Source: a virus
Length of the DNA stretch: 29,970 nucleotides
IMG/VR virus record: IMGVR_UViG_3300027963_000238
Span: 1 to 29,970 of that record
Strand: one strand, 5' to 3'
The translations under genes and the position numbers were made by a program. This document shows, piece after piece, positions 1-25,956 of the stretch. A model generated the notes under the pieces. It was given only the letters and a program-made list of their open reading frames with translations. It did no database searches and was not told the DNA's origin. Every line of letters starts with the position of its first letter. Position 1 is the first letter of the stretch.

Positions 1-3000
1 GGCAACTTAAATGTTACGGCTAATTATTTCAATGTATCTAATAATTTAATTGCTAACGGTAATGCAAATATAAGTGGTAACGCAAACGTTACCGGTAATG
101 TTAGCGCGAATAATTTTATAGCAGGCGGTAATATTACTGGTGCTAATTTAGTTAGTGCAAACTATTTCACTGGTACACTAACAACAAATGCTCAACCAAA
201 TGTTACTAGTCTTGGCACATTAAGCAATCTCTTTATTTTAGGTAATTTAGGTGTAGGTACTAATGTATCTACTACTGATGCTAGAGTTACTATTCTTGCT
301 GTAGGACAAACTAATGTTTATCCTGTTACAGGTAACAGTGTTGCAGCAGGCACTGATCTTCATGTAAGCGGCGGTAATGGCAATCTTACTAGAATAACAC
401 AAGATTCATTTGGATTAAACACTTATGTAGCGTTTACAGGTCGTGCTGCTGGAGGCACCGCTGCTGCACCTACACAGACTCTTGCAGGAGCTAATCTAAG
501 TCAATTTACTGGTCGTGGATTCTCTAATGGTTCATTAGAATTTGGTAATAATTCAACTGGTCTAATAGCTATTAAGGCTGCTGAAGATTTTACAGATACT
601 AGTCGTTCTACTAATGTAGTAATTTACACAACTTCAGTTGGAAATATTAATCCTACAGTAGCTGCTACTTTTGATGGTAATGGCAATTTAACTGTTACTG
701 GTAGTATTACTAGCACAGGTGGAAACGCTAATCTAGGTAATTCTATTAGTGCTAATTTTGTTAGTGTCAGTTCTAATACCGTTACTAATAATTTAAAAGT
801 TAATTTAGAATTCTCAGGTAATACTGCTAATTTTAGTGGAAATATAATTACTGCAAATGCTAACTTAGGTAATGTAGCGAATGCTAATTTCTTTAGTGGT
901 AACGGCGCGTATTTAACTGGTATTACTTTTGCAAATCTGACGGATGCTAATACTGCTAACTTAACTATTAATGAAATTTATTTACAAGGTGTTACTAATT
1001 TAGCAGTTAATCACACTGGTGCTACCGCTTATACATTTGATCAATATCCTGGAAGTAATCCAACATTATATGCAGTTGCCGGCACTACATTAGCATTTGA
1101 TTTAACTGCTGCCGGACATCCATTTCAAATTCAATATGCTAACGGCACAGACTACAACACTGGCTTATATCATGTAACTACTGCCGGTGTAGTAAGTACA
1201 GGAGCAAACGCTCAATCACAAACATCTGGCACACTGTACTTTAAGATACCCGGAGACCTTAATAGTAATTTAAAATATCAATGTTTTAACCATGTTGCGA
1301 TGAATGGTAATATTATCATACAAAATGCCAATATTGCTAATCTTTTATTAAATTTTACTGGTAATATTAATGCAAATTACTTTACTGGTAACGGTAGTTT
1401 ACTAACAGGCATCGGAAACGCAACTAATATTGTTAATGGTAACAGCAATGTGATTGTTACTGCTAACGGTAACGTTACTACTAGTGTAGCAGGAAATGCA
1501 AATGTACTAGTAGTAACAGGCACCGGCATAAACGTAGCAGGGTATTTAAATACAGGTAGTGGTGATATTACCACTACAGGTAATATAACCGGTGGCAATA
1601 TAATTGGCATAGTAGCAGCCGGAAGTAATGCGATTACTACTACAGGTAATATTACCGGTGGTAATATTATTGGAACAATAGCAGCCGGCTCAAATACTAT
1701 CACTACTACTGGCAATGCAAACGTTGGTAATCTAGGATTTGGATCGGGAGAAATTATTGGTACGGGTAATATTACCGGTGGTAATATCAGTGTTGGTAAC
1801 ATATCTACTACAGGCAATGCTAACGTAGGTAATCTCGGCTTTGGATCAGGTTCAATAACTGGTACAGGTAATATCACCGGTGGAAATATTATTGGTACTA
1901 TTGCTGCGGGTTCTAATACAATCACCACTACTGGCAATGCTAATGTTGGTAATTTAGGATTTGGCAGTGGAGTCGTTACTGGTACGGGTAATATTACCGG
2001 TGGCAACTTAATTGGTACCATCGCAGCTGGTTCAAATACTATTAGTACTACAGGTAATGCTAATCTAGGTAATATAGGATTTGGATCGGGAGAAATTACT
2101 GGTACAGGTAATGTCACTGCTGGCAACGTAATTGGTACAATTGCTGCAGGTTCTAATACTATTAGTACTACAGGTAACGCCAATGTTGGTAATTTAGGCT
2201 TTGGTAGTGGTGTTATTACTGGTACAGGTAATATCACTGGTGGCAATATTATTGGCACTATTGCAGCTGGCTCTAATACAATTAGCACTACTGGTAATGC
2301 TAATGTTGGTAATTTAGGCTTTGGTACTGGTTCAGTTACTGGTACAGGTAATATCACTGGTGGCAATATTATTGGCACTATTGCTGCCGGAAGTAATACA
2401 ATCACTACTACAGGTAATATCACCGGTGGTAATATAATTGGTAATGGTAGTCAGCTAACAGGTATAAATTTCTCTAACTTAGCTGATGCGATTACTGCTA
2501 ATTTAACTATTAATGAAGTTTATTTACAAGGTGTTACTAATTTAGCAGTTAATCACACCGGTGCCACCGCGTATACATTTGATCAATATCCTGGAAGTAA
2601 TCCATCTCTCTATGTAGTAGCAGGCACTACCTTAGCATTTGATTTAACTGCAGCCGGTCATCCATTCCAAATTCAATATGCAAATGGTACAGATTATAGC
2701 AATGGTCTATTCCATGTAACTACAACTGGAGTAGTAAGTACAGGAGCAAGTGCCCAATCACAAACATCAGGTACATTATATTGGAAAGTTCCTGGTGATA
2801 TCAGTGGTAATTTTAAATATCAATGCCAAAATCACACGGCAATGAACGGAAATATATTTGTTCAAGCAGCAAATATAGGTAATGTTCTTCTTAACTACAC
2901 TGGTAATTTATCAGCAGGTAATGCTAATTTAGGTAATGCTGTTGCTGCTAACTACTTTGTTGGAAATGGTTTCTATCTAACTGGTATTGACACTGCTGGT

Positions 3001-6000
3001 GTAGCGAACGGCAATTCTAATGTAAAAGTTTACAGCAATGCCAATGTAGAAATTTCATCTAACGGTGTAGCAAATGTATTGACAATAACTGGATCGGCAG
3101 TTGTTGCTTCTCAGAATGTATATGCTAATACTAACACAATACAAGCTAATATTATTGTAGGTAACACACTAACTGGTAACTTAAGTACTGCTGCACAACC
3201 AAATATAACAAGTGTTGGTAGTTTAACAACGTTGACAGTAACCGGCGACATTGTTGGTAATACAGCTAACTTTAATGGTGCTGTATATTCTAATGCTAAT
3301 AGTATCTCTGCTCCAACGCAATTGGCAACTAAGTCTTATGTTGACAATCAAGTTTCTACTGGTATTCAAGTTCATCCAGCAGTAATTGTCTCTACAACTA
3401 CTAATTTAACAGCAACTTATACTCCAGGTGGTACTAATCCAACAGTAACTAGTATTGTCACTGGCAATACACTGATATCAACAGGACACAATTTAAATAC
3501 TACGGATATGTTTGTGCCTACAGTGTCAAGTAGTGGTCTTACATCAGGTACTCCTTATTTCGTATATTCTGTCGCTAATGCAAACGCATTTACCCTAACT
3601 GCTTCTTGGGCCGGTCCCCAGTTAACCGGTCTTACAAATGGTACAGGACTGAGTATTACAAGCAATGCTAATCCAGGTGTTGGAGCTAAACTTACTAATT
3701 CGGGTACACAGGCAGTCATAACAATTGATAATACTGCATTGGCATTGAACGCTAGAGTGCTAGTTCAATACCAATCTAATGCGGCATTAAATGGTGTTTA
3801 TTTTGTCAGTAACGTTGGGTCAGTCTCTACTAATTGGGAATTAACTAGAGCAACAGACGCAGATGAATACTTTCCACAAAGCAATGAAGGTATCGCGCAA
3901 GGAGCTTATTTCTTTGTACAAGATGGTGATACTCTAGCAGGAGGCTCTTATGTAGTTGCTACTACTGGAATAATCATAATTGGTACTACTGGTATATCAT
4001 TTTCTGAATTCAGTGCGGCAGTACCATACACTGGCGTCAGTCCGATTGTAGTAACCGGCCAACAAATTAGTTTAGCTAATACTACTGGGTCAGGGGATGT
4101 TGTTGTATTAGCGACTAGTCCTAATCTTACAACACCAAATATTGGAACCGCAACAGGTAATAGCCTAACACTAAGTGGTAATGGTTTAGTAAGTGCAGCT
4201 AATGTCACTGCTTCTGCAAACGTCACCGCTGGTAATTTAAATACCAATGGTCAAATAACATCAACCGGTACCGGTAATTTATCTGACGGTGGCGGACAGT
4301 TATATCTAAACGGCACCGGTAATAATAGAATTGACTTCAATACTAATGGAACCGGTGCGCCAACATTTACCACACGAAGTGCTGGAAGTAAAATTGTATT
4401 GTATCCACTCACCAACGGAACCAATACAGATTATGCAATAGGTATTAACAGTGGTACATTTTGGTCAAGTGTCCCTCAATACGATAATGCACTACAATTT
4501 AAATGGTATGGTGGTACAACAGAAGTAGCAAACTTGAGTGGTACAGGTAATTTTTCAGCAGCGGGTAACATCACCGGTAGTAACATAATTACTACTGGTC
4601 AACTAGTCTCATCAGTAGCCACCGGTACTGCTCCACTTGTAGTATCAAGTACAACTCAAGTACCAAATCTATTTGCTGCAACAGCTAACGTAGCTAAAAA
4701 TAGTAATGTTGCTTCTGCAACAACTAATATATCTTATCCTACGTTTGCTTATGCTAATATAACTGGTGATTATCCATTACAAAGTAATACAGCATTCTCA
4801 GCTAATTTTGCAAACGGTGCATTTATTTCTACTACGTTCGTTGGTAATGTTGTAGCAGATTCTGCTAATATTACTGGTACTGCAAATGTTGGTAACATCA
4901 CTGGTGCTAATTTAGTTAGTGCGAATTATGTCGCAGGTACACTAACAACAAATGCTCAACCAAACATTACATCAGTTGGGACCTTATCAAGTGTTACAGT
5001 CAGTGGTAATGCTAACGTAGGTAACTTGGACTTTGGATCAGGTTCAATAACTGGCACGGGAAATATCACTGCTGGCAATTTAATTGGTGCAATTTCAGCC
5101 GGTTCTAATCCAATCACCACTACAGGTAATGCTAACCTTGGTAATTTAGGATTTGGCAGTGGAGTGATTACTGGTACAGGTAATATTACCGGTGGTAATA
5201 TTATTGGCACAATTTCAGCCGGAAGCAATACTATTAGCACTACTGGAAATGCTAATCTAGGTAATATAGGTTTTGGCAGTGGAGTGATTACTGGTACAGG
5301 TAATATTACCGGTGGCAATATTATTGGCACAATTTCAGCCGGAAGCAATACAATTACCACTACCGGAAATGCTAATCTAGGTAATATAGGTTTTGGCAGT
5401 GGAGTGATTACTGGTACAGGTAATATTACCGGTGGCAATATAATTGGTACCATCGCAGCCGGAAGTAACACTATCACTACTACCGGAAATGCTAATCTAG
5501 GTAATATAGGTTTTGGCAGTGGAGTCGTTACTGGTACAGGTAATATCACTGGTGGCAACATAATTGGTACCATCGCAGCCGGAAGTAACACTATCACTAC
5601 TACAGGCAATGCAAACGTAGGTAACTTGGGCTTTGGTAGCGGTGTTATTACTGGCACAGGTAATATCACTGGTGGCAACATAATTGGTACCATCGCAGCC
5701 GGAAGTAACACTATCACTACTACAGGCAATGCAAACGTTGGTAATCTTGGCTTTGGATCAGGTTCAGTAACTGGTACAGGTAATATCACTGGTGGCAATA
5801 TAATTGGTACAATCGCGGCCGGAAGTAATACAATTAGTACTACTGGTAATGCAAACGTTGGTAATTTGGGCTTTGGTAGTGGGGTCGTTACTGGTACAGG
5901 TAATATCACTGGTGGCAATATAAACACCAGCGGACAATTAGTTTCCACAGTGGCAACTGGCACCGCTCCATTAGCGGTAAGTAGTAATACTGTCGTTCCT

Positions 6001-9000
6001 AACTTAAATGCAGCATTTGCCAACATTGCAAATTATGTTGCTGTTACTACAGTTTCAACTAATATTTCATATCCAACATTTGCATATGCAGATCTTACAG
6101 GTACTTATCCACTACAAAGCAATACAGCTATTTCAGCTAACTTGGCAAATGGTGCGTTTATTGCTACTACGTTTGTTGGTAATGTAGTAGGTAATCTAAC
6201 AGGGGCCCTATCAAATGGTAATAGTAACGTAAACATTCCTGCTGCAAACGGAAACGTTAATATTAGTGCTGTAGGTAATGCTAACATATTAGTAGTAACT
6301 GGTACTGGTGCCAATATTACTGGTACTGCTAACGTCACGGGCAATACGAACGTTGGCGGTAACGTAAACGTCACTTCTAACGTAATAGCAGGTAACGTTT
6401 ATGCTAACTCAGGTACGATCGGTGGTTCATTAGTAGCAGGTACGCTAACTACAGCAGCACAACCTAATATTACATCAGTTGGCGCACTAACTGGACTAAC
6501 AGTATCTAATGCTACGGGTGTCGTTAACTTTACTACGACCGCTAACGTAACATTGGGTGCAGTTGCTAATCTTAAGATATCCGGTGGTACATCAGGATAT
6601 GTCTTATCTACTGACGGGGCAAGCAATCTAAGTTGGGTAGCACAATCAGGTGGTAGTATAGCCTCTATATCTAATGGTACAAGTAATGTAAATATCCCTG
6701 CGGCAAATGGAAACGTTAATATTTCATCCGCAGGTAATGCCAACATAGCAGTTATTACTGGTACTGGTATGAATGTGGCAGGTACAATTAATGGTACCGG
6801 TAACATTACTGGTGCTAATCTAATTGCTGGTGCCGGCTCAGGTGGTAATATTACCGGTGCTAATTTAGTTAGTGCAAACTACTTCACAGGGACATTAACG
6901 ACAAATGCACAACCTAATATTACATCAGTTGGTACGCTTACAGGATTAACAAGCACCGGTACTGTAAACTTTACGGGTGCTAGTAATGTATCACTTGGTG
7001 CAGTAGGTAATATTAAAATTACCGGTGGCAGTGCTAGTCAATATTTACAAACTGATGGCGCCGGCAACTTAAGTTTTGCTACGATAAGTTCTACTAGTAT
7101 TTCTAACGGTAACAGTAATGTAACCATTCCTGCTGCGAACGGAAACGTTAATATTTCATCCGCAGGTAATGCCAACATAGCAGTTATTACTGGTACTGGT
7201 ATGAATGTGGCAGGTACCATTAATGCTACAGGTAATATCACTGGTGGTAATTTACTTGGACCACATGCTAACGGCAATTCAAACGTTAATATCCCTGCTG
7301 CAAATGGAAACGTTAATATAAGTGCTGTTGGTAATGCTAACATATTAGTTGTAACTGGTACTGGTGCTAATATTACTGGTACTGCAAATATTTCAGGCAA
7401 TGCTAACGTTGGTAATTTAGGCTTTGGTAGTGGTGTCGTTACTGGTACAGGTAATATCACTGGTGGTAATATCATAGGTATTATTGCTGCAGGTTCAAAC
7501 ACTATAACAACTACAGGTAACATTACAGGTGGCAATTTACTTGGATCACATGCTAACGGCAATTCAAATGTTAATATCCCTGCTGCAAATGGAAACGTTA
7601 ATATAAGTGCTGTTGGTAATGCTAACATATTAGTTGTAACTGGTACTGGTGCTAATATTACTGGTACTGCAAATATTTCAGGCAATGCTAACGTTGGTAA
7701 CTTGGGCTTTGGATCAGGTCAAATTATTGGTACAGGTAATATCACTGGTGGTAATATCATAGGTATCATCGCCGCAGGTTCAAACACTATAACAACTACA
7801 GGTAACATTACTGGTGGCAATTTACTTGGATCACATGCCAATGGCAATTCAAATGTAAACATCCCTGCGGCAAATGGAAACGTTAATATTTCATCCGCAG
7901 GTAATGCTAACATTGTAGTTGTAACTGGTACTGGTATGAATGTGGCAGGTACAATTAATGCTACGGGTAATATCACTGGTGGCAATTTACTTGGACCACT
8001 GGCTAACGGCAATTCAAACGTTAATATCCCTACTGCAAACGGAAACGTTAATATAAGTGCTGTTGGTAATGCTAACATTGTAGTTGTAACTGGCACTGGT
8101 ATGAATGTGGCAGGTACAATTAATGCTACGGGTAATATCACTGGTGGTAATATAGTTACTGGTGGTGGTGCTGGTGGAAGTATGACTGGCGCTAACTTAA
8201 TTAGTGCAAACTACTTCACAGGTACTCTAACTACAGCAGCACAACCTAATATTACATCAGTTGGTACACTCACTGGGTTGACCAGTGGCGGTATTGTTAA
8301 CTTTACTACTGCAAGTAATGTGTCTCTAGGTGCAAACGGTAACGTTAAAATTACTGGTGGTACAAATGGTCAAGTTCTTACAACAGATGGTGCAGGTAAC
8401 TTAAGCTTTACTACAGTCTCAGGAGGTGGTGGCGCCGCGATTTCTAATGGCACCAGCTACGCTAATATAACCGCTTCAGGTGGTAATATTGTGTTGGCTG
8501 TTGCAAGTACTATTAGAGCCAATGTTACTTCTACTGGTCTTGATGTAACTGGCAATATTACTAGTGGCAATGCTAATATTACCGGTCAATTCATCTCTAC
8601 ACTAGCAACAGGTACTGCTCCGTTTGTAATAACAAGCACAACTCAAGTAGCTAACCTAAGCGTAGCTACTGCTGGTACTGCTGTTACCGTAACTGGTGCA
8701 GCACAAAGTAATATCACTAGTGTTGGTACTCTAAGTTCGTTGGGAGTTTCAGGTACGGTTACAGCTAGCCAATTTGTTTCAAACGTAGCCACTGGTACTG
8801 CACCAATAACTGTAAGTAGTACAACTCGTGTTGCTAACTTAAACGTAGCATATGCTAATGTAAGTGATTTTGGAGCTGTTACTAATCAAACAACAGGTAC
8901 TTATTATCCTGTTTTTGTAAGTAGCAATGCAACAGGAAACTATGCTCTTGCGGCTAACGGTGTGTTTAGTGCAAATATTGCCAACGGTGCATTTATTTCT

Positions 9001-9543
9001 AATTCATTCGTTGCCGGCGCCGGCTCAGGTGGTAATATTACCGGGGCTAACACAGTAAGTGCCAATACCTTCACTGCAGGTAGCGGCTCAGGTGGTAATA
9101 TTACCGGTGCTAACACGATAAGTGCAAACAGTTTCATTGGTGCAACAAGTATTGACTTTACTACTACTAGCAATGTGGCATTAGGCGCAAATGCAACCGT
9201 TACGGATGGTGCTTCAAATACCTATGCTATTGGTTATAAAGCGGTACCGCAAAGCACTACAGCATCGGGCAATTTTGTTTTAAGTGATAGTGCTAAGCAT
9301 TTATATGTTTCAGCAGGTGTTACTGTACCTGCTAATGCTTCTGTAGCATTTGCTATAGGAACCGTAGTCACGGTCTTGAATTCTAGTGCTAGCAGCATAA
9401 CTGTTGCACAAGGCTCAGGTGTGACGTTGAGACAAACTGGAACTGCCAATACTGGTAATAGAACGCTTTCTGGATATGGAATGTGTTCATGTATTAAAGT
9501 TGCCTCCGACACGTGGTATATTTCAGGAACTGGATTGACATAA
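1..9543 (+). CDS. Giant repetitive tail-fibre protein, 5' end outside window
   Basis: Frame 1 is open from base 1 to the TAA at 9541, at least 3180 residues, so the gene starts upstream; the ATG at 1300 is internal. The protein is Gly/Asn/Thr/Ala-rich low-complexity sequence typical of long aquatic phage fibres, with recurring AQPNITSVGTL segments. It contains two cupredoxin-like domains (residues about 320-440 and 835-955), blocks of 40-residue repeats ending TGNITGGNIIG (codons within 1561-2440 and 5041-5930), 95-residue repeats (7267-8120), and a TKSYVD-type segment followed by a non-repetitive domain with the motif ELTRATDADEY (3320-4000). The last 100 residues (TDGASNTYAIGYKAV to the end) are non-repetitive and look like a tip domain. 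Expected role: receptor-binding or baseplate-attached fibre. Fibre assignment is by composition and repeats; exact gene equivalence is unknown. Confidence 0.85.
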   Translation, partial: GNLNVTANYFNVSNNLIANGNANISGNANVTGNVSANNFIAGGNITGANLVSANYFTGTLTTNAQPNVTSLGTLSNLFILGNLGVGTNVSTTDARVTILAVGQTNVYPVTGNSVAAGTDLHVSGGNGNLTRITQDSFGLNTYVAFTGRAAGGTAAAPTQTLAGANLSQFTGRGFSNGSLEFGNNSTGLIAIKAAEDFTDTSRSTNVVIYTTSVGNINPTVAATFDGNGNLTVTGSITSTGGNANLGNSISANFVSVSSNTVTNNLKVNLEFSGNTANFSGNIITANANLGNVANANFFSGNGAYLTGITFANLTDANTANLTINEIYLQGVTNLAVNHTGATAYTFDQYPGSNPTLYAVAGTTLAFDLTAAGHPFQIQYANGTDYNTGLYHVTTAGVVSTGANAQSQTSGTLYFKIPGDLNSNLKYQCFNHVAMNGNIIIQNANIANLLLNFTGNINANYFTGNGSLLTGIGNATNIVNGNSNVIVTANGNVTTSVAGNANVLVVTGTGINVAGYLNTGSGDITTTGNITGGNIIGIVAAGSNAITTTGNITGGNIIGTIAAGSNTITTTGNANVGNLGFGSGEIIGTGNITGGNISVGNISTTGNANVGNLGFGSGSITGTGNITGGNIIGTIAAGSNTITTTGNANVGNLGFGSGVVTGTGNITGGNLIGTIAAGSNTISTTGNANLGNIGFGSGEITGTGNVTAGNVIGTIAAGSNTISTTGNANVGNLGFGSGVITGTGNITGGNIIGTIAAGSNTISTTGNANVGNLGFGTGSVTGTGNITGGNIIGTIAAGSNTITTTGNITGGNIIGNGSQLTGINFSNLADAITANLTINEVYLQGVTNLAVNHTGATAYTFDQYPGSNPSLYVVAGTTLAFDLTAAGHPFQIQYANGTDYSNGLFHVTTTGVVSTGASAQSQTSGTLYWKVPGDISGNFKYQCQNHTAMNGNIFVQAANIGNVLLNYTGNLSAGNANLGNAVAANYFVGNGFYLTGIDTAGVANGNSNVKVYSNANVEISSNGVANVLTITGSAVVASQNVYANTNTIQANIIVGNTLTGNLSTAAQPNITSVGSLTTLTVTGDIVGNTANFNGAVYSNANSISAPTQLATKSYVDNQVSTGIQVHPAVIVSTTTNLTATYTPGGTNPTVTSIVTGNTLISTGHNLNTTDMFVPTVSSSGLTSGTPYFVYSVANANAFTLTASWAGPQLTGLTNGTGLSITSNANPGVGAKLTNSGTQAVITIDNTALALNARVLVQYQSNAALNGVYFVSNVGSVSTNWELTRATDADEYFPQSNEGIAQGAYFFVQDGDTLAGGSYVVATTGIIIIGTTGISFSEFSAAVPYTGVSPIVVTGQQISLANTTGSGDVVVLATSPNLTTPNIGTATGNSLTLSGNGLVSAANVTASANVTAGNLNTNGQITSTGTGNLSDGGGQLYLNGTGNNRIDFNTNGTGAPTFTTRSAGSKIVLYPLTNGTNTDYAIGINSGTFWSSVPQYDNALQFKWYGGTTEVANLSGTGNFSAAGNITGSNIITTGQLVSSVATGTAPLVVSSTTQVPNLFAATANVAKNSNVASATTNISYPTFAYANITGDYPLQSNTAFSANFANGAFISTTFVGNVVADSANITGTANVGNITGANLVSANYVAGTLTTNAQPNITSVGTLSSVTVSGNANVGNLDFGSGSITGTGNITAGNLIGAISAGSNPITTTGNANLGNLGFGSGVITGTGNITGGNIIGTISAGSNTISTTGNANLGNIGFGSGVITGTGNITGGNIIGTISAGSNTITTTGNANLGNIGFGSGVITGTGNITGGNIIGTIAAGSNTITTTGNANLGNIGFGSGVVTGTGNITGGNIIGTIAAGSNTITTTGNANVGNLGFGSGVITGTGNITGGNIIGTIAAGSNTITTTGNANVGNLGFGSGSVTGTGNITGGNIIGTIAAGSNTISTTGNANVGNLGFGSGVVTGTGNITGGNINTSGQLVSTVATGTAPLAVSSNTVVPNLNAAFANIANYVAVTTVSTNISYPTFAYADLTGTYPLQSNTAISANLANGAFIATTFVGNVVGNLTGALSNGNSNVNIPAANGNVNISAVGNANILVVTGTGANITGTANVTGNTNVGGNVNVTSNVIAGNVYANSGTIGGSLVAGTLTTAAQPNITSVGALTGLTVSNATGVVNFTTTANVTLGAVANLKISGGTSGYVLSTDGASNLSWVAQSGGSIASISNGTSNVNIPAANGNVNISSAGNANIAVITGTGMNVAGTINGTGNITGANLIAGAGSGGNITGANLVSANYFTGTLTTNAQPNITSVGTLTGLTSTGTVNFTGASNVSLGAVGNIKITGGSASQYLQTDGAGNLSFATISSTSISNGNSNVTIPAANGNVNISSAGNANIAVITGTGMNVAGTINATGNITGGNLLGPHANGNSNVNIPAANGNVNISAVGNANILVVTGTGANITGTANISGNANVGNLGFGSGVVTGTGNITGGNIIGIIAAGSNTITTTGNITGGNLLGSHANGNSNVNIPAANGNVNISAVGNANILVVTGTGANITGTANISGNANVGNLGFGSGQIIGTGNITGGNIIGIIAAGSNTITTTGNITGGNLLGSHANGNSNVNIPAANGNVNISSAGNANIVVVTGTGMNVAGTINATGNITGGNLLGPLANGNSNVNIPTANGNVNISAVGNANIVVVTGTGMNVAGTINATGNITGGNIVTGGGAGGSMTGANLISANYFTGTLTTAAQPNITSVGTLTGLTSGGIVNFTTASNVSLGANGNVKITGGTNGQVLTTDGAGNLSFTTVSGGGGAAISNGTSYANITASGGNIVLAVASTIRANVTSTGLDVTGNITSGNANITGQFISTLATGTAPFVITSTTQVANLSVATAGTAVTVTGAAQSNITSVGTLSSLGVSGTVTASQFVSNVATGTAPITVSSTTRVANLNVAYANVSDFGAVTNQTTGTYYPVFVSSNATGNYALAANGVFSANIANGAFISNSFVAGAGSGGNITGANTVSANTFTAGSGSGGNITGANTISANSFIGATSIDFTTTSNVALGANATVTDGASNTYAIGYKAVPQSTTASGNFVLSDSAKHLYVSAGVTVPANASVAFAIGTVVTVLNSSASSITVAQGSGVTLRQTGTANTGNRTLSGYGMCSCIKVASDTWYISGTGLT
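961..1320 (+). other. Cupredoxin-like domain, copy 1, within tail fibre
   Basis: Within the fibre frame, AFDLTAAGHPFQIQY is followed about 55 residues later by YQCFNHVAM. The potential type-1 copper ligands are His373 (codon 1117), Cys428 (1282), His431 (1291) and Met434 (1300). The spacing C-x2-H-x2-M is that of amicyanin. Copper binding is inferred from the ligand pattern only. Confidence 0.6.
1855..2440 (+). repeat. 120-bp (40-residue) in-frame tandem repeats, block 1
   Basis: Near-identical segments recur every 120 bp (for example at 1861, 1981, 2101, 2221 and 2341), each encoding TGTGNITGGNIIG, an AAGSNT segment and GNANVGNLGFGSG. Degenerate copies extend upstream to about 1560. Copies differ mainly at synonymous positions. 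Confidence 0.9.
2500..2862 (+). other. Cupredoxin-like domain, copy 2, within tail fibre
   Basis: Near-duplicate of the 961-1320 domain. Ligand candidates are His887 (codon 2659), Cys942 (2824), His945 (2833) and Met948 (2842), again C-x2-H-x2-M. Differences from copy 1 are scattered while the four ligands are kept, which suggests the site is under selection. Confidence 0.6.
5041..5930 (+). repeat. 120-bp (40-residue) in-frame tandem repeats, block 2
   Basis: Same unit as block 1, in register at 5041, 5161, 5281, 5401, 5521, 5641, 5761 and 5881. Some adjacent units are almost identical at DNA level, indicating recent duplication or gene conversion. Confidence 0.9.
7267..8125 (+). repeat. 285-bp (95-residue) in-frame repeats, block 3
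   Basis: A longer unit beginning ANGNSNVNIPAANGNVNIS recurs at 7267, 7552 and 7837 with a strict 285-bp step, then in shortened form near 8000. It combines the NVNIPAANGNVNIS module with the NANVGNLGFGSG module of blocks 1 and 2. Confidence 0.85.
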
Positions 9544-10640
9544 TGACAGGAATATTGAATATTCTATTAGCATACGGCGCTAGCTCTGGTACCACTACCA
9601 CTACTACGACTACAGCAGGACCAACAACTACAACCACAACAACAGCAGCACCTACAACAACGACAACAACCACAGCAGCACCAACAACTACAACTACGAC
9701 TACAGCAGCACCTACCACTACTACAACAAGTACTACCACAAGTACATCTACAACTACAACTACAGCAGCACCTACCACTACTACAACAAGTACTACCACA
9801 AGTACATCTACAACTACAACTACAACTGCATCACCTACTTTAACCGCAGATGTTACACTAGTAGGCGGTGGCGGTGGCGGTGGCTCTGGACCACGCGGTG
9901 GCGGTGGCGGTGGTGGGGCGTTCCGGTACTCGCCAAGCTCCACACTAACTAGAGGTACGACGTACTCATATTCAATAGGATCAGGTGGCACCGGTGGTGC
10001 AAGAGCAGTAGCTGCCTCGACTACTAATGGCGGTACTGGTGGAACTACATCACTTACTGGATTTACCAGTGCCAGTGGCGGTAATGGTGGTGTTAAAGGG
10101 GTACCAAGTGGTACTGGTGGTAATGGTGGTGCTTCTGGTGGTGGCTCGGCTGGTGGTAGTGGAACGGCCAGTTCTGGTGCTGGTGGCGGTGGCGGTGGAA
10201 ATGGAACCAGTGGCAGTCCTGGTGGTGCTACATCAACAGGTACCGGTGGCGCCGGGGGCAGCGGATCATTTGTTAGTGGTTTGTCAGGATCGTCAGGAAA
10301 CGGTGGCGGCGGTGGAGGCGGGAGTGGGACTAGGGCCGCAGGTGGATCTAGCGGAGCAGGAAGAGGGGGCGCAGGGCAAACCGCGCAGGATGGAGAAGCC
10401 GGAAATTTCAACGGAAACGGCGGTGGAGGGGGAGGTGCTGCTGCTTCTGGAAGTACTTATGCTGGCGGTGGCGCCGGCTCTGCAGGTGCAATAGTGGTAA
10501 ACTTCCCGTCTAGCGGTCCCGCCGGAACATTTACTATTTATAACAGCGGCGGAGGTGTGATTTCCACTACTTCTATTACTACATTAAGCGGGGCGGTTAT
10601 TAATTTAACTTCTGGTGGTGCGTACTTTATTATAACATAA
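9543..10640 (+). CDS. Thr-rich and Gly-rich adhesin-like tail protein
   Basis: 365 residues from the ATG at 9543, which overlaps the fibre stop codon (TAATG) and implies translational coupling; an in-frame GTG at 9513 lies inside the fibre gene and is less likely. After a short hydrophobic start (MTGILNILLAYG), residues about 16-95 are an almost pure Thr/Ala/Pro/Ser tract of repeated TTTTTTTAAP units. Residues 100-320 form a polyglycine domain with runs of 5-7 Gly and motifs such as TYSYSIGSGGTGG, like the Gly-rich domain common in phage tail-tip adhesins. The C-terminus is a small beta-type sequence ending GGAYFIIT. Position directly after the fibre suggests a distal receptor-binding partner. 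Host-range role is inference. Confidence 0.75.
   Translation: MTGILNILLAYGASSGTTTTTTTTAGPTTTTTTTAAPTTTTTTTAAPTTTTTTTAAPTTTTTSTTTSTSTTTTTAAPTTTTTSTTTSTSTTTTTTASPTLTADVTLVGGGGGGGSGPRGGGGGGGAFRYSPSSTLTRGTTYSYSIGSGGTGGARAVAASTTNGGTGGTTSLTGFTSASGGNGGVKGVPSGTGGNGGASGGGSAGGSGTASSGAGGGGGGNGTSGSPGGATSTGTGGAGGSGSFVSGLSGSSGNGGGGGGGSGTRAAGGSSGAGRGGAGQTAQDGEAGNFNGNGGGGGGAAASGSTYAGGGAGSAGAIVVNFPSSGPAGTFTIYNSGGGVISTTSITTLSGAVINLTSGGAYFIIT
9700..9825 (+). repeat. 60-bp perfect tandem repeat in Thr-rich tract
   Basis: The segment starting at about 9700 is repeated with a 60-bp step at about 9760 with no difference over the full unit, encoding the same 20 residues of Thr/Ser plus AAP. Shorter 30-bp-like units precede it from 9590. 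Confidence 0.85.
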
Positions 10641-10838: not shown

Positions 10839-12494
10839 ATGAAAATATCAGTTATTAAACGCTCTGGCGTTAAAGAGTCCCTTACATTGGAAAAATGGCA
10901 GTCACAAATAGCAAAAATATGTCAGGGGATAGCTGATGTTAGTCAATCAATGATAGAAATAAAAGCCCAACCTCACTTTTATGATGGTATCACTACTAGA
11001 GAAATTGACCAAATTACACTTAGGGCAGTGGTAGACCTTATTGATGTAGAAAGCAATCCTGAATTAGGTCATACTAATTATCAGTATGTAGCAGGTAAGC
11101 AGAGATTAAGTATGCTTAGGAAAGATGTATATGGTACATATATACCACCCAGTCTATATAGTATCGTAAAAAGAAATGTTGAAACCGGTCTTTACACCTC
11201 AGAATTGTTAGAATGGTATACCGAAGAAGATTGGAACAAAATGGAATCTTTTATTGATCATGGTAAGGATGAGCAATATAGCTGTGCTGCTATTGAACAG
11301 ATGATTGAAAAGTATTTGGTACGTAATCGTAGTACCAAAGAAATTTACGAAACACCACAAGTTCGTTATATCGTTGCTGCTGCTACTATTTTTCATAAGG
11401 AAGAACCACAGTCAGCAAGAATGCGTTATATAAAGGAATATTACAATGCGGCTTCAGATGGTTTATTTACTCTCGCTACTCCTGTTCTTGCTGGGCTTGG
11501 AACTCCCACTAAGCAGTTCAGTAGCTGTGTACTCATACGCAGTGATGATGACCTTGACTCCATTTTTGCTAGTGGAGAAATGATGGCCAAGTATGCTAGC
11601 AAACGTGCTGGCATTGGATTAGAGATTGGTAGACTACGCCCATTGGGTAGTCCAATTAGGGGAGGAGAAATCATGCATACCGGCATGATCCCGTTTTTAA
11701 AGAAATGGTTTGGGGATCTTAGATCCTGTTCACAAGGAGGGATTAGAAATGCGTCAGCTACTGTGTTCTATCCGATCTGGCATCACCAATTTGATGACCT
11801 TATTGTGCTCAAAAATAATCAAGGAACCGAAGAAACCCGAGTCAGACATATGGACTATGGTGTCGTACTCTCGGCATTCTTTTGGCGTAGGTTTAAGAAC
11901 AAAGAGAATATTACGTTCTTCGACCCGAACCAAGTACCAGACCTCTACGAAGCCTTCTACAAAAATACCGAACTATTTGAAAAACTCTATGTAAAATATG
12001 AAGAACACACCGGTCTTCGTAAAAAAACCATGAGTGCCGAAGAAGTATTCAAGAGTGGCATCTTAAAAGAACGAACAGATACAGGGCGTATCTACCTGGT
12101 GTTCATTGACAACGTAATGAAGCAGGGTTCATTTGATCCTGAGTATCATACAATTTACCAGAGTAATTTGTGTTGCGTCACCGGTGACACTCAAGTTGTA
12201 TTCCAACATGAGAACGGAAATATTGAACAAATGTCTATGTCAAGTGCGGTTGAAAGATTTGAGTTGGGTAATTTGACCAACTCAAAAATTAAAAGTTTTA
12301 AGAATGGTGAAGTTTCTTGGGAAAATATTGATGCCGCAATCAAAACAAAGACGGTTACTGAACTATATGAAATTGAAGATGAGAAGGGGAATGTATTGAA
12401 ATGTACCGGTGACCACCGTGTTTTTACTAAGAATCGAGGATATGTAAGAGCAGATGAATTAGTAGAAACTGACGAGTTATGTGTTGAAATTTGA
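10839..12494 (+). CDS. nrdA: Ribonucleotide reductase large subunit, N-terminal part fused to N-intein
   Basis: 551 residues: 445 residues of class Ia NrdA (N-extein) followed by a 106-residue N-terminal intein half. NrdA reduces ribonucleoside diphosphates to deoxyribonucleotides with NrdB. Visible are the N-terminal ATP-cone-like region (MKISVIKRSGVKE), the first redox-active Cys (SSCVLIRSDDD, Cys230, E. coli C225 equivalent) and the active-site NLC ending at Cys445 (E. coli C439, the thiyl radical site). The next residue, encoded at 12174, is the first Cys of the intein. The frame stops at 12492, so the gene cannot make a full enzyme alone; the rest is in the next gene. Start ATG has a weak AGG upstream. 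Functional only if trans-splicing occurs. Confidence 0.95.
   Translation: MKISVIKRSGVKESLTLEKWQSQIAKICQGIADVSQSMIEIKAQPHFYDGITTREIDQITLRAVVDLIDVESNPELGHTNYQYVAGKQRLSMLRKDVYGTYIPPSLYSIVKRNVETGLYTSELLEWYTEEDWNKMESFIDHGKDEQYSCAAIEQMIEKYLVRNRSTKEIYETPQVRYIVAAATIFHKEEPQSARMRYIKEYYNAASDGLFTLATPVLAGLGTPTKQFSSCVLIRSDDDLDSIFASGEMMAKYASKRAGIGLEIGRLRPLGSPIRGGEIMHTGMIPFLKKWFGDLRSCSQGGIRNASATVFYPIWHHQFDDLIVLKNNQGTEETRVRHMDYGVVLSAFFWRRFKNKENITFFDPNQVPDLYEAFYKNTELFEKLYVKYEEHTGLRKKTMSAEEVFKSGILKERTDTGRIYLVFIDNVMKQGSFDPEYHTIYQSNLCCVTGDTQVVFQHENGNIEQMSMSSAVERFELGNLTNSKIKSFKNGEVSWENIDAAIKTKTVTELYEIEDEKGNVLKCTGDHRVFTKNRGYVRADELVETDELCVEI
12174..12491 (+). other. Split intein, N-terminal half (106 residues)
   Basis: Begins CVTGDTQV, the block A signature with nucleophilic Cys1, and contains CTGDHRVFTKNRGYVRADEL, the block B region with TxxH (here TGDH). 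The half ends at VETDELCVEI followed by a true stop. No endonuclease domain is present. The split lies after the N-terminal splicing domain, as in known naturally split phage inteins. Confidence 0.92.
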
Positions 12495-12531
12495 TTACCA
12501 ACCCAAAATACAAATTAGGAAGAATTAAAGT

Positions 12532-12633
12532 ATGATTAAAATTAGAAAAATAAACGTAGAACCAACCGACGTATACGATATATCTGTTCCCGAAACACAG
12601 TGCTTTTTTGCAGATAATATTCTTGTTCATAAC
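12532..12633 (+). other. Split intein, C-terminal half (34 residues)
   Basis: Short C-intein carrying the terminal His-Asn pair (VHN) needed for Asn cyclisation, immediately followed by the +1 Cys. Length is within the range known for phage split inteins. Confidence 0.92.
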
Positions 12634-13617
12634 TGTGAAATTCTACTTCCTACTAAATCATTCAAGCGTTTGGATGACAGTGATGGACGTGTGGCGCTCT
12701 GTACTCTCGGAAGTATTAACTGGGGTGCGTTCAGGCATCCTGAGGATATGCGCCGTGCTTGCCGTATACTTCAGCGTAGTCTTTGTAATATACTTGATTA
12801 TCAGGACTTCCTAAGTATTCAGTCTAAACTAAGCAATGATGAAATTCAACCATTGGGCATTGGTGTAACTAACTTGGCCTATTGGCATGCTAAACGCGGC
12901 GTTAAGTATGGTGATAAAGATGCTTTACAAGATGTTAAAAGTTGGATAGAGCATCAAGCATACTACTTGACTGAAGCCACTGTGGAGTTAGCTAAGGAGC
13001 GTGGTCCATGTTTAGATAGTCATAAGACAAGATATGGACAGGGTATCTTCCCTTGGGAACTCAGAGCCGATGCTGTCAATGACTTGGCAGAGTTTAGTCC
13101 AGAGCTTGATTGGGAAACTCTTAGAGAAAACATGATAAAATATGGAGTTCGTAACGCTACATTAATGGCTATAGCTCCAGTTGAATCTAGTTCAGTAGTT
13201 ATCAACAGTACTAATGGTATTGAAATGCCCATGAGTCTAATCTCTGTAAAAGAAAGCAAAGCTGGCTCTTTTGTTCAAGTAGTACCTGAGTATCAAAAAC
13301 TAAAAAACAAGTATCAGCTAATGTGGGATCAAAAGGATTGTGATGGATACCTTAAAACTGCTGCTGTATTGGCTGCTTATGTAGACCAAAGCATTAGCAC
13401 TAACACTTTCTACAATCCAGCATTTTTCCCTGATCGTAAAGTTCCTACAACGCTTATAGCCAAGAATCTAATGCAAGCACATATATGGGGCCTAAAAACT
13501 TTTTATTACTCATTAATTTCTAAAATGGGATCTAAAGAGGTTACTGAATCCGCACCTGCAATATTAGAACCCATAGATTTTGATGATGAAGAAGATTGTA
13601 TTGCCTGCAAATTATAA
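12532..13617 (+). CDS. nrdA: C-intein fused to ribonucleotide reductase large subunit C-terminal part
   Basis: 361 residues: a 34-residue C-intein then 327 residues of NrdA. The C-intein has block F (DVYDISVPETQCFFADNIL) and block G ending VHN, with Cys as the +1 extein residue (codon 12634). The C-extein begins CEILLPTK, supplying the catalytic Glu (E. coli E441), then VALCTLGSINWG with the second redox Cys (E. coli C462), the usual barrel region, and the C-terminal redox tail CIACKL. It has its own start with an AGGAAG site, 37 bases after the first half. Spliced NrdA would be 772 residues, normal for the family. Confidence 0.95.
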   Translation: MIKIRKINVEPTDVYDISVPETQCFFADNILVHNCEILLPTKSFKRLDDSDGRVALCTLGSINWGAFRHPEDMRRACRILQRSLCNILDYQDFLSIQSKLSNDEIQPLGIGVTNLAYWHAKRGVKYGDKDALQDVKSWIEHQAYYLTEATVELAKERGPCLDSHKTRYGQGIFPWELRADAVNDLAEFSPELDWETLRENMIKYGVRNATLMAIAPVESSSVVINSTNGIEMPMSLISVKESKAGSFVQVVPEYQKLKNKYQLMWDQKDCDGYLKTAAVLAAYVDQSISTNTFYNPAFFPDRKVPTTLIAKNLMQAHIWGLKTFYYSLISKMGSKEVTESAPAILEPIDFDDEEDCIACKL

Positions 13618-14251: not shown

Positions 14252-15352
14252 ATGTCCAAACAACAATACAACCTAAACACTAAAACAGACTATTTAAATC
14301 GTAAAATGTTTCTAGACCCTGAGGGTCCAGTTACTGTTCAAAGATTTGAAGAAGTAAAATACAATAAATTACAAAAGATAGAACAAACTGCTAGAGGGTT
14401 TTTTTGGGTACCTGAAGAAATCTCTCTATCTAAAGATGCTAACGATTTTAAAGACGCTAGCGATGCGGTTAAACATATCTTTACTAGCAACTTACTAAGA
14501 CAAACCGCACTTGATAGTATTCAAGGCCGTGGGCCAGCACAGGTTTTTACACCTGTTGTGTCTTTACCTGAACTAGAAGCATTGATGTACAACTGGAGTT
14601 TCTTTGAAACTAATATTCATAGTCGCAGTTATAGTCACATTATTCGTAATATCTACAACGTACCAAAGGATGTGTTTAACACTATCCATGATACAAAAGA
14701 AATTATTGATATGGCTAGCAGTGTGGGTAAGTACTATGATGAGCTACATCAAATTAATTGTCATAAAGAAATAGGGGAGGATATCCCTGAAAAAATGCAT
14801 ATTCGTGCAATTTGGTTAGCACTCAATGCTAGTTATGCATTAGAAGCGTTCCGCTTTATGGTATCGTTTGCTACATCATTGGCTATGGTTGAAAACAAAA
14901 TCTTTATCGGCAATGGTAACATTATTAGCTTGATTCTACAAGATGAATTATTACACAAAGAATGGACTGCTTGGATGATTAACCAAGTAGTAAAGGAAGA
15001 TAGTAGGTTCGTTCAAGCCAAACAAGATTGCGAACAAGCAGTATACGATATGTATATGGATGTTATTAGAGAAGAAAAAGATTGGGCTACTTACTTATTT
15101 AAAATGGGTCCTGTTATCGGACTTAATGCTAATATTCTTAAAGATTTTGTAGATTATACAGCCGTAAATGCTCTTAAAGAAATAGGCATCAAGTATCTTG
15201 GCTCAGCTCCAAAAAGCACTCCTATACCATGGTTCAACAAACATAGTGACACTAGTAAAAAGCAGACGGCCTTGCAAGAAAATGAAAGTACAAATTATGT
15301 TATAGGAATTATGTCTGAAGCATTAGACTATAACCAATTACCACAACTATAA
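14252..15352 (+). CDS. nrdB: Ribonucleotide reductase small subunit (class Ia)
   Basis: 366 residues, full length. It supplies the diiron-tyrosyl radical to NrdA. Candidate ligands and radical site: Asp88 (RQTALDSIQGRG), Glu119 and His123 (FFETNIHSRSY), radical Tyr127, Glu198 (YALEAFRF), and Glu232/His235 (DELLHKEW). The C-terminal EALDYNQLPQL resembles the peptide that docks on NrdA. One oddity: the Glu-His pair at 119-123 is E-x3-H, whereas E. coli has E115-x2-H118. Located between an unknown gene and glutaredoxin in the nrd operon. Confidence 0.96.
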   Translation: MSKQQYNLNTKTDYLNRKMFLDPEGPVTVQRFEEVKYNKLQKIEQTARGFFWVPEEISLSKDANDFKDASDAVKHIFTSNLLRQTALDSIQGRGPAQVFTPVVSLPELEALMYNWSFFETNIHSRSYSHIIRNIYNVPKDVFNTIHDTKEIIDMASSVGKYYDELHQINCHKEIGEDIPEKMHIRAIWLALNASYALEAFRFMVSFATSLAMVENKIFIGNGNIISLILQDELLHKEWTAWMINQVVKEDSRFVQAKQDCEQAVYDMYMDVIREEKDWATYLFKMGPVIGLNANILKDFVDYTAVNALKEIGIKYLGSAPKSTPIPWFNKHSDTSKKQTALQENESTNYVIGIMSEALDYNQLPQL

Positions 15353-21237: not shown

Positions 21238-21690
21238 ATGTCTATCACAATTAAAAACTTAGAGAGTGCTTTGGCTGGTGAAAGTCAAGCCCATGTTAAA
21301 TATCGCTATTTTGCGAAAATTGCCCGAGAAGAAGGGTTTGAAGATGTTGCACGACATTTTGAACATACCGCGGATCAAGAATTACTACATGCATGGGGCC
21401 ATTTAGAATTGCTTATTGGTAAGCCAAATACTAAAGAATGCCTAGAAAAAGCAATTGAAGGTGAAACTTATGAGTTTACTACAATGTATCCTAATTTCAG
21501 AGATGATGCTGTTCATGAAGGTAATGAAGTAGCTGAAAAAGAAATTCAGGGCCAAATTGAAGAAAGTCGTGAGCATGCCGAACAGTTTAAAGCGGTACTA
21601 GCTAAAGCAGAAAAACGTTTTGCAGCTTTAAAGCGTGTTGAACAACGACATGCCACTGCCTATCAAAAGATGTTAGAGGAGGTGCAATAA
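21238..21690 (+). CDS. Rubrerythrin (ferritin-like diiron domain only)
   Basis: 150 residues forming a four-helix ferritin-like diiron protein that reduces peroxide using electrons from rubredoxin. Ligand candidates: Glu15 (GESQAH), Glu48 and His51 (DQELLHAW), a Glu in EGETYEF (76-80) and the EESREH segment (108-113). The C-terminal rubredoxin domain of classical rubrerythrins is absent, but a separate rubredoxin gene begins on its last base (TAATG). AAAGGAG lies before the ATG. Probably protects infected cells or the phage RNR/IscU machinery from oxidants; that role is inferred. Confidence 0.93.
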   Translation: MSITIKNLESALAGESQAHVKYRYFAKIAREEGFEDVARHFEHTADQELLHAWGHLELLIGKPNTKECLEKAIEGETYEFTTMYPNFRDDAVHEGNEVAEKEIQGQIEESREHAEQFKAVLAKAEKRFAALKRVEQRHATAYQKMLEEVQ

Positions 21691-22591: not shown

Positions 22592-23152
22592 ATGTCTGTT
22601 TTAGCACTGGATATATCGGGAACGCCCCGACAGTGGATTTCATATGATACAGCAATTCTTTACCATGCAACCAAAAGTGTCGCATGGACTATGGGTGAAG
22701 TTGTGGCTAAATATCGTGGTGGAATTCAACGCAACGGGAAACTAAGTTATATTGAAACTCAATCAATTATTGCTATCAAAGGACATGGATTTAATCCAAC
22801 TAAGCATAGTAAAGTAGCATTGGGCAATAGAACATTATTTGGTAGAGATAGACATATCTGTGCTTATTGCGGAGATTATTTTCCCAATGCTAATAGCCTA
22901 AGCCGAGACCATATTATACCTAAAAGCAAGGGCGGTGAAAATGTATGGATGAACGTAGTCACCGCATGTAAAGATTGCAATGCCATGAAAGGGTGTAAAA
23001 CTCTTAAAGAGGCTAGAATGGAATTACTATATGTGCCATATGTGCCAAATCATTTTGAAAATATGATCCTACAGAATAGAAATATTTTGGCTGATCAAAT
23101 GGATTATTTAAGAGCAGGGTTACCAAAACATAGTAGAATTTTATTGAGTTAG
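22592..23152 (+). CDS. HNH endonuclease
   Basis: 186 residues with a strong AAGGAG site. An N-terminal 80-residue region (ALDISGTPRQWISYDTAI to HGFNPTKHSKVALGNRTLF) precedes the HNH core: Cys90/Cys93 (CAYCG), Asp106-His107 (SRDHIIP), Asn121, and Cys126/Cys129 (CKDCN) with Lys133. The two Cys pairs form the structural zinc site. The whole protein resembles a proteobacterial chromosomal HNH family, including the C-terminal LLYVPYVPNHFENMILQNR, so it was likely taken from a host. Sits between tRNA genes, where free-standing homing nucleases often lie; a homing role is inference. Confidence 0.9.
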   Translation: MSVLALDISGTPRQWISYDTAILYHATKSVAWTMGEVVAKYRGGIQRNGKLSYIETQSIIAIKGHGFNPTKHSKVALGNRTLFGRDRHICAYCGDYFPNANSLSRDHIIPKSKGGENVWMNVVTACKDCNAMKGCKTLKEARMELLYVPYVPNHFENMILQNRNILADQMDYLRAGLPKHSRILLS

Positions 23153-24801: not shown

Positions 24802-25956
24802 CTATTGAGTCGGAGGATTTAAACCGTTATTAACTGTTGACGTATTATTTGTTGTGGTTGTTGTCGTTGTCACGTTAGGTTGTATTCTAGGCAATTGATT
24901 AGATAATGATTGAATGCTGGCATTTGCAGCATTTGATACAGCAACAATTGATGTATTTCCATTATTGCTAATGTTTGTTGCGGTTGTCAAACCGTTTAAC
25001 CCAATTGTAAAAACACCTGTTATGCCTGAATTAGCTACATTTGTTGTAGCTGTCAACCCATTAGCCGCTGTTGTTGTCAACCCAGTTAGACCTGAATTAG
25101 CTATATTTGTTGCGGTTGTCAACCCATTAGCTGCTGTTGTTGTCAAACCAGTTAAGCCTGAATTAGCTATATTTGTTGCGGTTGTCAACCCATTAGCTGC
25201 TGTTGTTGTCAAACCAGTTAGACCTGAATTAGCTACATTTGTTGTAGCTGTCAACCCATTAGCCGCTGTTGTGGTCAACGCAGTTAGGCCCGAATTAGCA
25301 ACATTCGTTGTAGCAGTTAAACCATTAGCTGCGGTTGTTGTCAAACCAGTTAGGCCTGAATTAGCTACATTTGTTGTGGCAGTCAACCCATTAGCTGCTG
25401 TTGTCGTGAGAGAATTAAATCCTGCACTAGCAACTGAATTAGCTACATTTGTTGTGGCAGTCAACCCATTAGCTGCTGTTGTCGTGAGAGAATTAAATCC
25501 TGCACCAGCAATATCTGTATTGGATTTTGCCATGTTGTTGCTCATTGAAGTGAATGTTGAGTTTGTGCTCTGAGCAATTGCGGCTTGGTTATTACTTTGA
25601 GTGATTGCAACTTGACGGTTGGCACTTATACCATAAACCTGTGTTAAACTTGGTAATAAAACACTAGTCCATTGTAAAGCAGTATCAGCTAAACTTTTTG
25701 GTGCAGCTACTTGAACATTTTGTGAACTATTGTTATTGCCACCGCTGCCCATGTGTAGACTCATGACTGCTGCTACTTTTGCAGAACTGTCACCTGATTT
25801 AGCAATTTCAGCAATTGCTGCATATTTAGCTGCATCTGCCATGGCATTTGCTTGTGCAATTTTTTGTTGTGTTGCAACATACATCCCATAATCTGCCGAT
25901 GCACATCCAGCAACCATCAAACATGTAGAAACAATAGCTAACAATGATTTACGCAT
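24802..25956 (-). CDS. Repeat-containing lipoprotein
   Basis: 384 residues, the only minus-strand gene. A signal peptide ends in lipobox VAGC (Cys18), followed by AS, which predicts an outer-membrane lipoprotein. An Ala-rich helical region (residues 25-60, TQQKIAQANAMADAAKYAAI) leads to about eight 22-residue repeats of the form GLTGLTTTAANGLTATTNVA (residues about 155-320) and a Thr-rich tail. AAGGAG lies before the ATG (complement of 25954-25956). The heptad-like, Ala/Thr-rich repeats suggest a fibrous coiled or trimeric structure. Possible roles are superinfection exclusion or host-surface change; none can be shown here. Resembles the style of the phage's own fibre repeats. Confidence 0.85.
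   Translation of the reverse strand: MRKSLLAIVSTCLMVAGCASADYGMYVATQQKIAQANAMADAAKYAAIAEIAKSGDSSAKVAAVMSLHMGSGGNNNSSQNVQVAAPKSLADTALQWTSVLLPSLTQVYGISANRQVAITQSNNQAAIAQSTNSTFTSMSNNMAKSNTDIAGAGFNSLTTTAANGLTATTNVANSVASAGFNSLTTTAANGLTATTNVANSGLTGLTTTAANGLTATTNVANSGLTALTTTAANGLTATTNVANSGLTGLTTTAANGLTTATNIANSGLTGLTTTAANGLTTATNIANSGLTGLTTTAANGLTATTNVANSGITGVFTIGLNGLTTATNISNNGNTSIVAVSNAANASIQSLSNQLPRIQPNVTTTTTTTNNTSTVNNGLNPPTQ
25020..25480 (-). repeat. 66-bp (22-residue) tandem repeats in lipoprotein gene
   Basis: Units recur at a 66-bp step (72 bp where SVASAGFNS replaces SGLTG), with adjacent units nearly identical in DNA, for example those spanning 25060-25230. Prone to unequal recombination. Confidence 0.85.

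What the first reader, a model, noticed from the sequence alone, without database searches (positions are those of the whole stretch)
12174..12633. Naturally split intein between radical Cys and catalytic Glu of NrdA
The intein halves (106 and 34 residues) are encoded by separate genes 37 bases apart. Insertion falls inside the N-L-C-x-E active-site motif, directly after the thiyl-radical Cys, so neither half is active until trans-splicing. Split NrdA inteins are known in metagenomic phage DNA, often with an endonuclease gene between halves; here the gap is almost empty, suggesting a lost or never-acquired nuclease.
Basis: partly seen in the sequence, partly recalled or inferred. Interest (0 to 1): 0.8.

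Follow-up and report, generated by a model that had tools for sequence, protein, structure and literature searches.

The report
Phage split intein that lost nuclease
A virus of bacteria carries its DNA-building-block enzyme in two pieces that a split, self-removing protein segment should join, and the 37 bases between the pieces are the leftover tail of a DNA-cutting gene that close relatives still carry, so this is a known kind of mobile element caught after losing its means of spreading.

Summary
Phage nrdA is broken by a naturally split intein: IntN (106 aa, 12174-12491, then TGA), a 37-base gap, and IntC (34 aa, 12532-12633). The break lies directly after the radical Cys (SNLC|C...HN|CEILLPTK). 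About 75 close relatives have the uninterrupted site, and removing the intein gives the predicted 772-residue NrdA. Another contig (6,700 bp, one mismatch) has the same stop and gap, and dozens of divergent relatives keep the same split, so an assembly error is unlikely.

It was lost. Relatives carry a ~310-codon homing-endonuclease gene between the halves; the window's gap is that gene's last 11 codons (NPKYKLGRIKV*), ranking first of 31,096 stop-free 33-mers. About a dozen alleles show separate deletions of different size. Nearly all keep the tail, which holds the IntC ribosome-binding site. One group appears to have re-fused into a contiguous mini-intein.

The intein has moved between phages: the window's closest NrdA relatives are empty.

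Splicing itself is untested. This is a new member of a known kind (split NrdA inteins, 'fractured genes'), with a well-resolved history of nuclease loss.

The parts
10839..12173 (+). N-extein of NrdA (445 aa, class Ia ribonucleotide reductase large subunit, ends SNLC with the radical Cys)
   Evidence: ORF; Pfam PF00317 and PF02867, PHROG 84 E 5e-156; aligns full length with empty-site relatives
12174..12491 (+). IntN, N-terminal half of the split intein (106 aa, Cys1 nucleophile, block B CTGDH)
   Evidence: TIGR01445 above cut-off; 80-92% identical to IntN of L001-L003; profile match to solved NrdJ-1 intein
12492..12494 (+). TGA stop ending the first half
   Evidence: same stop position in relatives and in L082
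12495..12531 (+). 37-base gap; deletion scar of a homing endonuclease gene
   Evidence: Compared with gaps of 964-981 nt holding an intact ~310-aa endonuclease in relatives
12500..12535 (+). Remnant of the endonuclease 3' end in its own frame (NPKYKLGRIKV*, stop overlapping the IntC ATG as in intact relatives)
   Evidence: Rank 1 of 31,096 stop-free 33-mers against 12 intact endonuclease tails; distal six codons alone 15 of 40,611
12516..12522 (+). Shine-Dalgarno-like AGGAAGA inside the remnant, serving the IntC start codon (inferred)
   Evidence: Sequence; conserved upstream of the IntC ATG in nearly all relatives
12532..12633 (+). IntC, C-terminal half of the split intein (34 aa, block F VYDISV, block G ILVHN)
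   Evidence: TIGR01443 above cut-off; 34 aa from the IntC ATG in nearly every split relative
12634..13617 (+). C-extein of NrdA (327 aa, starts with the +1 Cys, CEILLPTK, ends CIACKL)
   Evidence: Pfam PF02867; matches empty-site relatives
14252..15352 (+). NrdB, the partner subunit
   Evidence: Pfam PF00268 E 4e-41, PHROG 86

Best explanation
This is a naturally split class 1 intein in nrdA of a T4-like phage, at the site directly after the radical Cys, that has lost its homing endonuclease. The two genes make NrdA(N)-IntN and IntC-NrdA(C). The halves associate into one Hint fold: Cys1 of IntN attacks the peptide bond after the radical Cys, the +1 Cys takes over the chain, and the terminal Asn of IntC releases the intein, leaving NrdA with a restored N-L-C-C-E active site (inferred by homology). 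The element first came in with a ~310-aa HNH-type endonuclease between the halves, which presumably drove homing into empty nrdA alleles. A deletion removed the endonuclease, its late-promoter-like leader and its start, but left its last 11 codons, probably because these carry the ribosome-binding site of IntC (deletion shown by comparison; reason for retention inferred). The intein is now kept because NrdA function needs it, and it can no longer spread by its own nuclease.
For: Shown by comparison: intein models above curated cut-offs; catalytic Cys1, T-x-x-H, HN and +1 Cys all present; empty alleles define the exact insertion point. Relatives L001, L003 and others have the same split plus an intact endonuclease (PHROG 655 homing endonuclease). 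The gap encodes the endonuclease tail. Intact alleles, partial deletions, scars and contiguous forms are interspersed on the intein tree, with at least 12 changes of endonuclease state. Purifying selection on the intein: dN/dS 0.02-0.13 against relatives and about 0.03-0.08 between endonuclease-less pairs. Horizontal movement: the window's NrdA groups with empty L005-L007 (100% SH-aLRT) and the intein is scattered on the extein tree (12 changes, 8 forced by starred branches); L101 has 48% extein but 84% IntN identity. A contiguous relative folds as Hint (pLDDT 93; NrdJ-1 Z 22.0, rmsd 1.4 over 136 residues).
Against: No splicing has been measured. Each half alone falls below Pfam's gathering score for Intein_splicing (32.4 and 22.1 against 35.8 bits), as expected for halves. 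The 5' part of the gap (TTACCAA) also resembles the endonuclease leader, so the exact junction is uncertain. The extein tree is a quick search and its empty alleles were picked as the most similar ones, so the number of gains and losses is approximate. L082 may come from the same sample as the window.
Confidence: 0.88

Rival explanations
1. The split is original: this intein never had a nuclease between its halves, and relatives acquired one later.
For: The gap is short, and short-gap alleles are common in a wider sample.
Against: The window gap encodes the endonuclease tail in the right frame, ending at the same ATGA overlap. Relatives with 46, 68, 103 or 114 remaining endonuclease codons, and L173 with both ends left, show deletions of different extent.
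Confidence: 0.04
2. Assembly or sequencing error: one continuous intein with a false stop and frameshift.
For: The window is a metagenomic contig, and contiguous relatives exist (L108, L120).
Against: Both a stop and a +1 frame change would have to be false. L082 has the identical arrangement over 6,700 bp. Dozens of divergent contigs, and the complete genomes of Yersinia phage TG1 and Klebsiella phage KP13-7, are split in the same region.
Confidence: 0.02
3. The two proteins work as unspliced pieces, as in Aeh1 NrdA, or NrdA is no longer functional, and the intein halves are dead.
For: Aeh1 NrdA split by mobE is active as two polypeptides (PMC2988022).
Against: Catalytic intein residues are intact and dN/dS is very low, also between endonuclease-less alleles. 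Unspliced IntN and IntC would sit next to the radical Cys. NrdA marker motifs are intact in the window sequence.
Confidence: 0.07
4. The split intein is kept as a regulator: splicing delays or conditions NrdA activity during infection.
For: The insertion is in the active site. An intein in Aquifex NrdB raises iron loading of the spliced product (PMC8772380).
Against: Closely related phages do without it (about 75 empty alleles), so no regulatory need is apparent.
Confidence: 0.08

Closest known systems
Split NrdA inteins in 'fractured genes' of phage metagenomes (Dassa et al. 2009, paper not held; cited in PMC3653736 for 7 nrdA and 2 nrdJ genes with inteins; includes NrdA-2, PMC7090010)
   Same: nrdA broken in two by a split intein in phage DNA; relatives of the window carry a free endonuclease gene between the halves
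   Different: Here the endonuclease is deleted to an 11-codon remnant.
NrdJ-1 split intein (PDB 8UBS)
   Same: Closest solved structure: phmmer E 7e-17 for the joined halves, profile E 2e-23, fold Z 22.0 for a contiguous relative
   Different: NrdJ-1's host gene is nrdJ by its name (class II reductase, background knowledge); here it is nrdA
Yersinia phage vB_YenM_TG1 gp162-gp163-gp164 (NC_028820)
   Same: Cultured T4-like phage: NrdA split by an intein with a related homing endonuclease between (34% identical), leader with TATAAATA
   Different: Insertion one residue upstream (NL|C), nuclease intact, intein halves not annotated as such
Klebsiella phage KP13-7 nrdA (OP617745)
   Same: Same site SNLC|C...HN|CEI, split intein with 49% IntN identity
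   Different: An ORF with a GIY-YIG-like start lies between the halves; nrdA is further fragmented
Aeh1 NrdA split by mobE (PMC2988022)
   Same: Endonuclease insertion divides phage nrdA in a functionally critical region
   Different: No intein; the pieces work without ligation

Membership tests
Intein (Hint domain), class 1 | N-terminal splicing region with Cys/Ser1 and block B T-x-x-H | tested here: met
   TIGR01445 34.7 bits over cut-off 24.5; C1, T78, H81 invariant among 12 relatives
Intein (Hint domain), class 1 | C-terminal splicing region with His-Asn followed by Cys/Ser/Thr +1 | tested here: met
   TIGR01443 25.0 over 15.6...ILVHN|C
Intein (Hint domain), class 1 | Pfam PF14890 Intein_splicing above gathering score | tested here: inconclusive
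   32.4 and 22.1 bits on the separate halves against 35.8; each half can match only part of the model
Intein (Hint domain), class 1 | Hint fold | tested here: met
   Predicted for contiguous relative L108 using the halves as alignment, pLDDT 93.2; NrdJ-1 Z 22.0, rmsd 1.4, 136 aligned. Not predicted for the window's own halves
Intein (Hint domain), class 1 | In-frame precise insertion relative to an empty allele | tested here: met
   75 relatives without insert; removing the intein restores SNLC-CEILLPTK
Naturally split intein | Halves encoded by separate genes, each with its own translation signals | tested here: met
   Stop plus +1 frame change, IntC ATG with AGGAAGA upstream
Naturally split intein | Trans-splicing activity | not testable with these tools
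   Needs co-expression
Fractured gene (split intein with free endonuclease gene between the halves) | Endonuclease gene between the halves | tested here: not met
   Only 37 bases, holding the last 11 codons of one; intact in close relatives
Mobile (homing) intein | Own homing endonuclease | tested here: not met
   Deleted
Class Ia ribonucleotide reductase large subunit | NrdA homology in both parts and catalytic motifs after joining | tested here: met
   PHROG 84 on both parts, PF02867 on both; NLCCE, FYY and C-terminal CIAC visible in the sequence

The most novel reading that the evidence does not exclude
Loss of the free endonuclease is a common, repeated end state of split inteins. The split survives because the nuclease's last codons contain the ribosome-binding site of the C-terminal half, so surviving deletions stop short of it. 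In at least one group (L120, L122, L123) a deletion re-fused the halves into a contiguous mini-intein, so splitting is reversible in nature.
Probability: 0.55. Interest if true: 0.6.

Novelty: new member of a known kind. Interest (0 to 1): 0.45.

Why it matters
Split inteins are widely used ligation tools, but how they arise, and what becomes of them once the nuclease is gone, is mostly argued from single examples. This site gives a series in closely related phages: empty allele, split with intact nuclease, split with part of the nuclease, split with a few codons left, and contiguous. It offers material for testing the homing-cycle model on split inteins, a possible reason why the split persists, and a set of untested split inteins with short (34-residue) C halves and Cys +1.

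Tried and rejected
Assembly error: rejected (second contig, conserved split, stop plus frame change). Nuclease never acquired: rejected. Nucleotide identity of the gap alone as proof of the scar: not enough, because the gap's 5' half also resembles the endonuclease leader; the codon-profile test was used instead. Scan of bacterial and archaeal genomes with the IntN alignment: no relative found, so no cellular source was seen at that sensitivity. Folding the contiguous relative without an alignment gave a useless model (pLDDT 49.6); with the halves as alignment it gave 93.2. Co-conversion of flanking exons: identity between the window and L005-L007 dips around the insertion, but other bins vary as much, so no claim is made. 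The Dassa 2009 paper was not held, so statements about it rest on citing papers and memory.

Full report
WHAT IS THERE. The window is a 29,970-base virus record. nrdA is encoded by two ORFs, 10839-12494 and 12532-13617, followed by a DUF2452 gene, nrdB and a glutaredoxin. The first ORF ends with 106 intein residues starting CVTGDT directly after SNLC; the second starts with 34 intein residues ending ILVHN before CEILLPTK. NCBI's intein_Nterm and intein_Cterm models both pass their cut-offs.

WHERE IT SITS. A scan of viral contigs with the first ORF returned 80 relatives; 73 read SNLC-CEILLPT[KR] without an insert at that point and two read SNLC-LEILLPTK. The intein therefore lies between the radical Cys and a second Cys, which is its +1 nucleophile; the catalytic Glu is the next residue. 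A related group of inteins, such as L004 and L113-L127, sits one residue upstream (SNL|C...HN|CAE), where the radical Cys itself is the +1 residue.

REAL, NOT AN ASSEMBLY ERROR. The halves differ by a stop and by one base of frame. L082, another contig, matches the window over 6,700 bp with one mismatch, including the stop and gap. It may come from a related sample, but dozens of divergent contigs also end IntN at or near the same place, and the complete genomes of Yersinia phage TG1 and Klebsiella phage KP13-7 are split alike.

THE MISSING NUCLEASE. In L001, L003 and many others the gap is 964-981 bases and holds a ~310-aa ORF matching the homing endonuclease family PHROG 655 (E 5e-13) and, weakly, the AHH branch of the HNH/EndoVII nucleases. 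Each intact copy printed has an ATAAATA motif like a T4 late promoter ahead of its start. Most intact copies end in a peptide like NPEFVQGRIKI*, with the stop overlapping the IntC ATG. The window's gap reads NPKYKLGRIKV* in that frame. Against 12 intact tails this 11-codon stretch scores first of 31,096 stop-free 33-mers of the window (27.7; next 18.5), and the six codons outside the ribosome-binding site rank 15 of 40,611. The nuclease was present and was deleted.

A SERIES OF DELETIONS. Other alleles keep nuclease codons 196-309 (L093), 207-309 (L102), 242-309 (L104), 264-309 (L085), several pieces (L098), both ends (L173), or only a few codons (L083, L116); in L088, L097 and L115 the halves nearly abut or overlap. 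These lie next to intact alleles on the intein tree, which needs at least 12 changes of nuclease state. Different end points imply separate deletions. Nearly all keep AGGA or GGAAGA just upstream of the IntC ATG; the L097 allele lacks it and has a stop-start overlap instead, and L088 has only a weak match. I infer that the nuclease tail is kept because it carries the IntC ribosome-binding site. A parallel is known: promoters of T4 genes embedded in homing endonuclease genes favour retention of the endonuclease (PMC2988022).

RE-FUSION. L120, L122 and L123 carry a contiguous mini-intein within one ORF. The IntC start Met is still inside it, the junction read in the nuclease frame gives TQGRSL* against KRGRTL* in the nearest intact nuclease L125, and the group lies within a split, nuclease-bearing clade. 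The scar is short, so this is likely, not certain. L108-L111 are also contiguous, but the direction of change there is open.

MOVEMENT AND SELECTION. The window's NrdA groups with three empty alleles (100% SH-aLRT) and the intein is scattered over the extein tree (12 changes, 8 forced by starred branches; quick search). L101 has a NrdA only 48% identical to the window's but an IntN 84% identical. Synonymous differences are fewer in the intein (pS 0.43-0.72 in most comparisons) than in the extein (0.72-0.87), and intein dN/dS is 0.02-0.13. This fits an element that spread horizontally and is held by selection for splicing.

FOLD AND MECHANISM. The closest solved relative is the NrdJ-1 split intein. 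A contiguous relative modelled with the split halves as its alignment reaches pLDDT 93.2 and matches NrdJ-1 at Z 22.0, rmsd 1.4 over 136 residues. All catalytic residues of a class 1 intein are present. Trans-splicing is therefore the expected mechanism, by homology; it has not been shown here. That unspliced halves are inactive is also unproven, since Aeh1 NrdA works in two pieces (PMC2988022).

NOVELTY. Phage nrdA genes broken by split inteins, often with an endonuclease between, are known (Dassa et al. 2009 as cited in PMC3653736 and PMC7090010). The homing-cycle model already predicts nuclease loss (PMC8966425). In the papers I could search I found no description of a graded series of nuclease deletions in one split intein, nor of natural re-fusion; the key older paper was not readable here. 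I therefore file this as a new member of a known kind with moderate interest.

Noticed in passing
L083, L085, L102, L108, L116 (upstream nrdA), also partial L084, L095, L104, L109: nrdA has a second fracture near codon 294-297 (the SCSQGG region) with an insert of about 0.5 to 3 kb (about 2 kb in L083); in L095 it reads SC|CVTPDTWVEIL, which looks like another intein.
   Followed up: partly
L107 and L108, just downstream of the intein: A further fracture about 15 codons into the C-extein: a block-B-like tail (LTLDDGQEVTLRGEHKVLL), then in L107 a GIY-YIG-like ORF, then NrdA resuming in another ORF (MKIVKKECINEGG in L107).
   Followed up: no
L070:2766-3700: A GIY-YIG-like ORF interrupts nrdA shortly after SFKRM in an allele without this intein.
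   Followed up: no
L147 (Klebsiella phage KP13-7): nrdA lies in at least four pieces, several annotated as hypothetical proteins, with at least two split inteins and a GIY-YIG-like ORF.
   Followed up: partly
window 22592-23152: Free-standing HNH endonuclease (HNH_5 E 8e-17), a different family from the one lost from nrdA.
   Followed up: no
window 1-9543 and 24802-25956: Long ORFs with tandem repeats: units of 120, 240 and 285 bases in the first, 66 bases in the second.
   Followed up: no
window 9513-10640: Thr-rich then Gly-rich low-complexity ORF with 30/60-base repeats just upstream of nrdA.
   Followed up: no
window 21238-21690: Rubrerythrin/ferritin-like protein (PF02915 E 7e-18) in a phage.
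   Followed up: no
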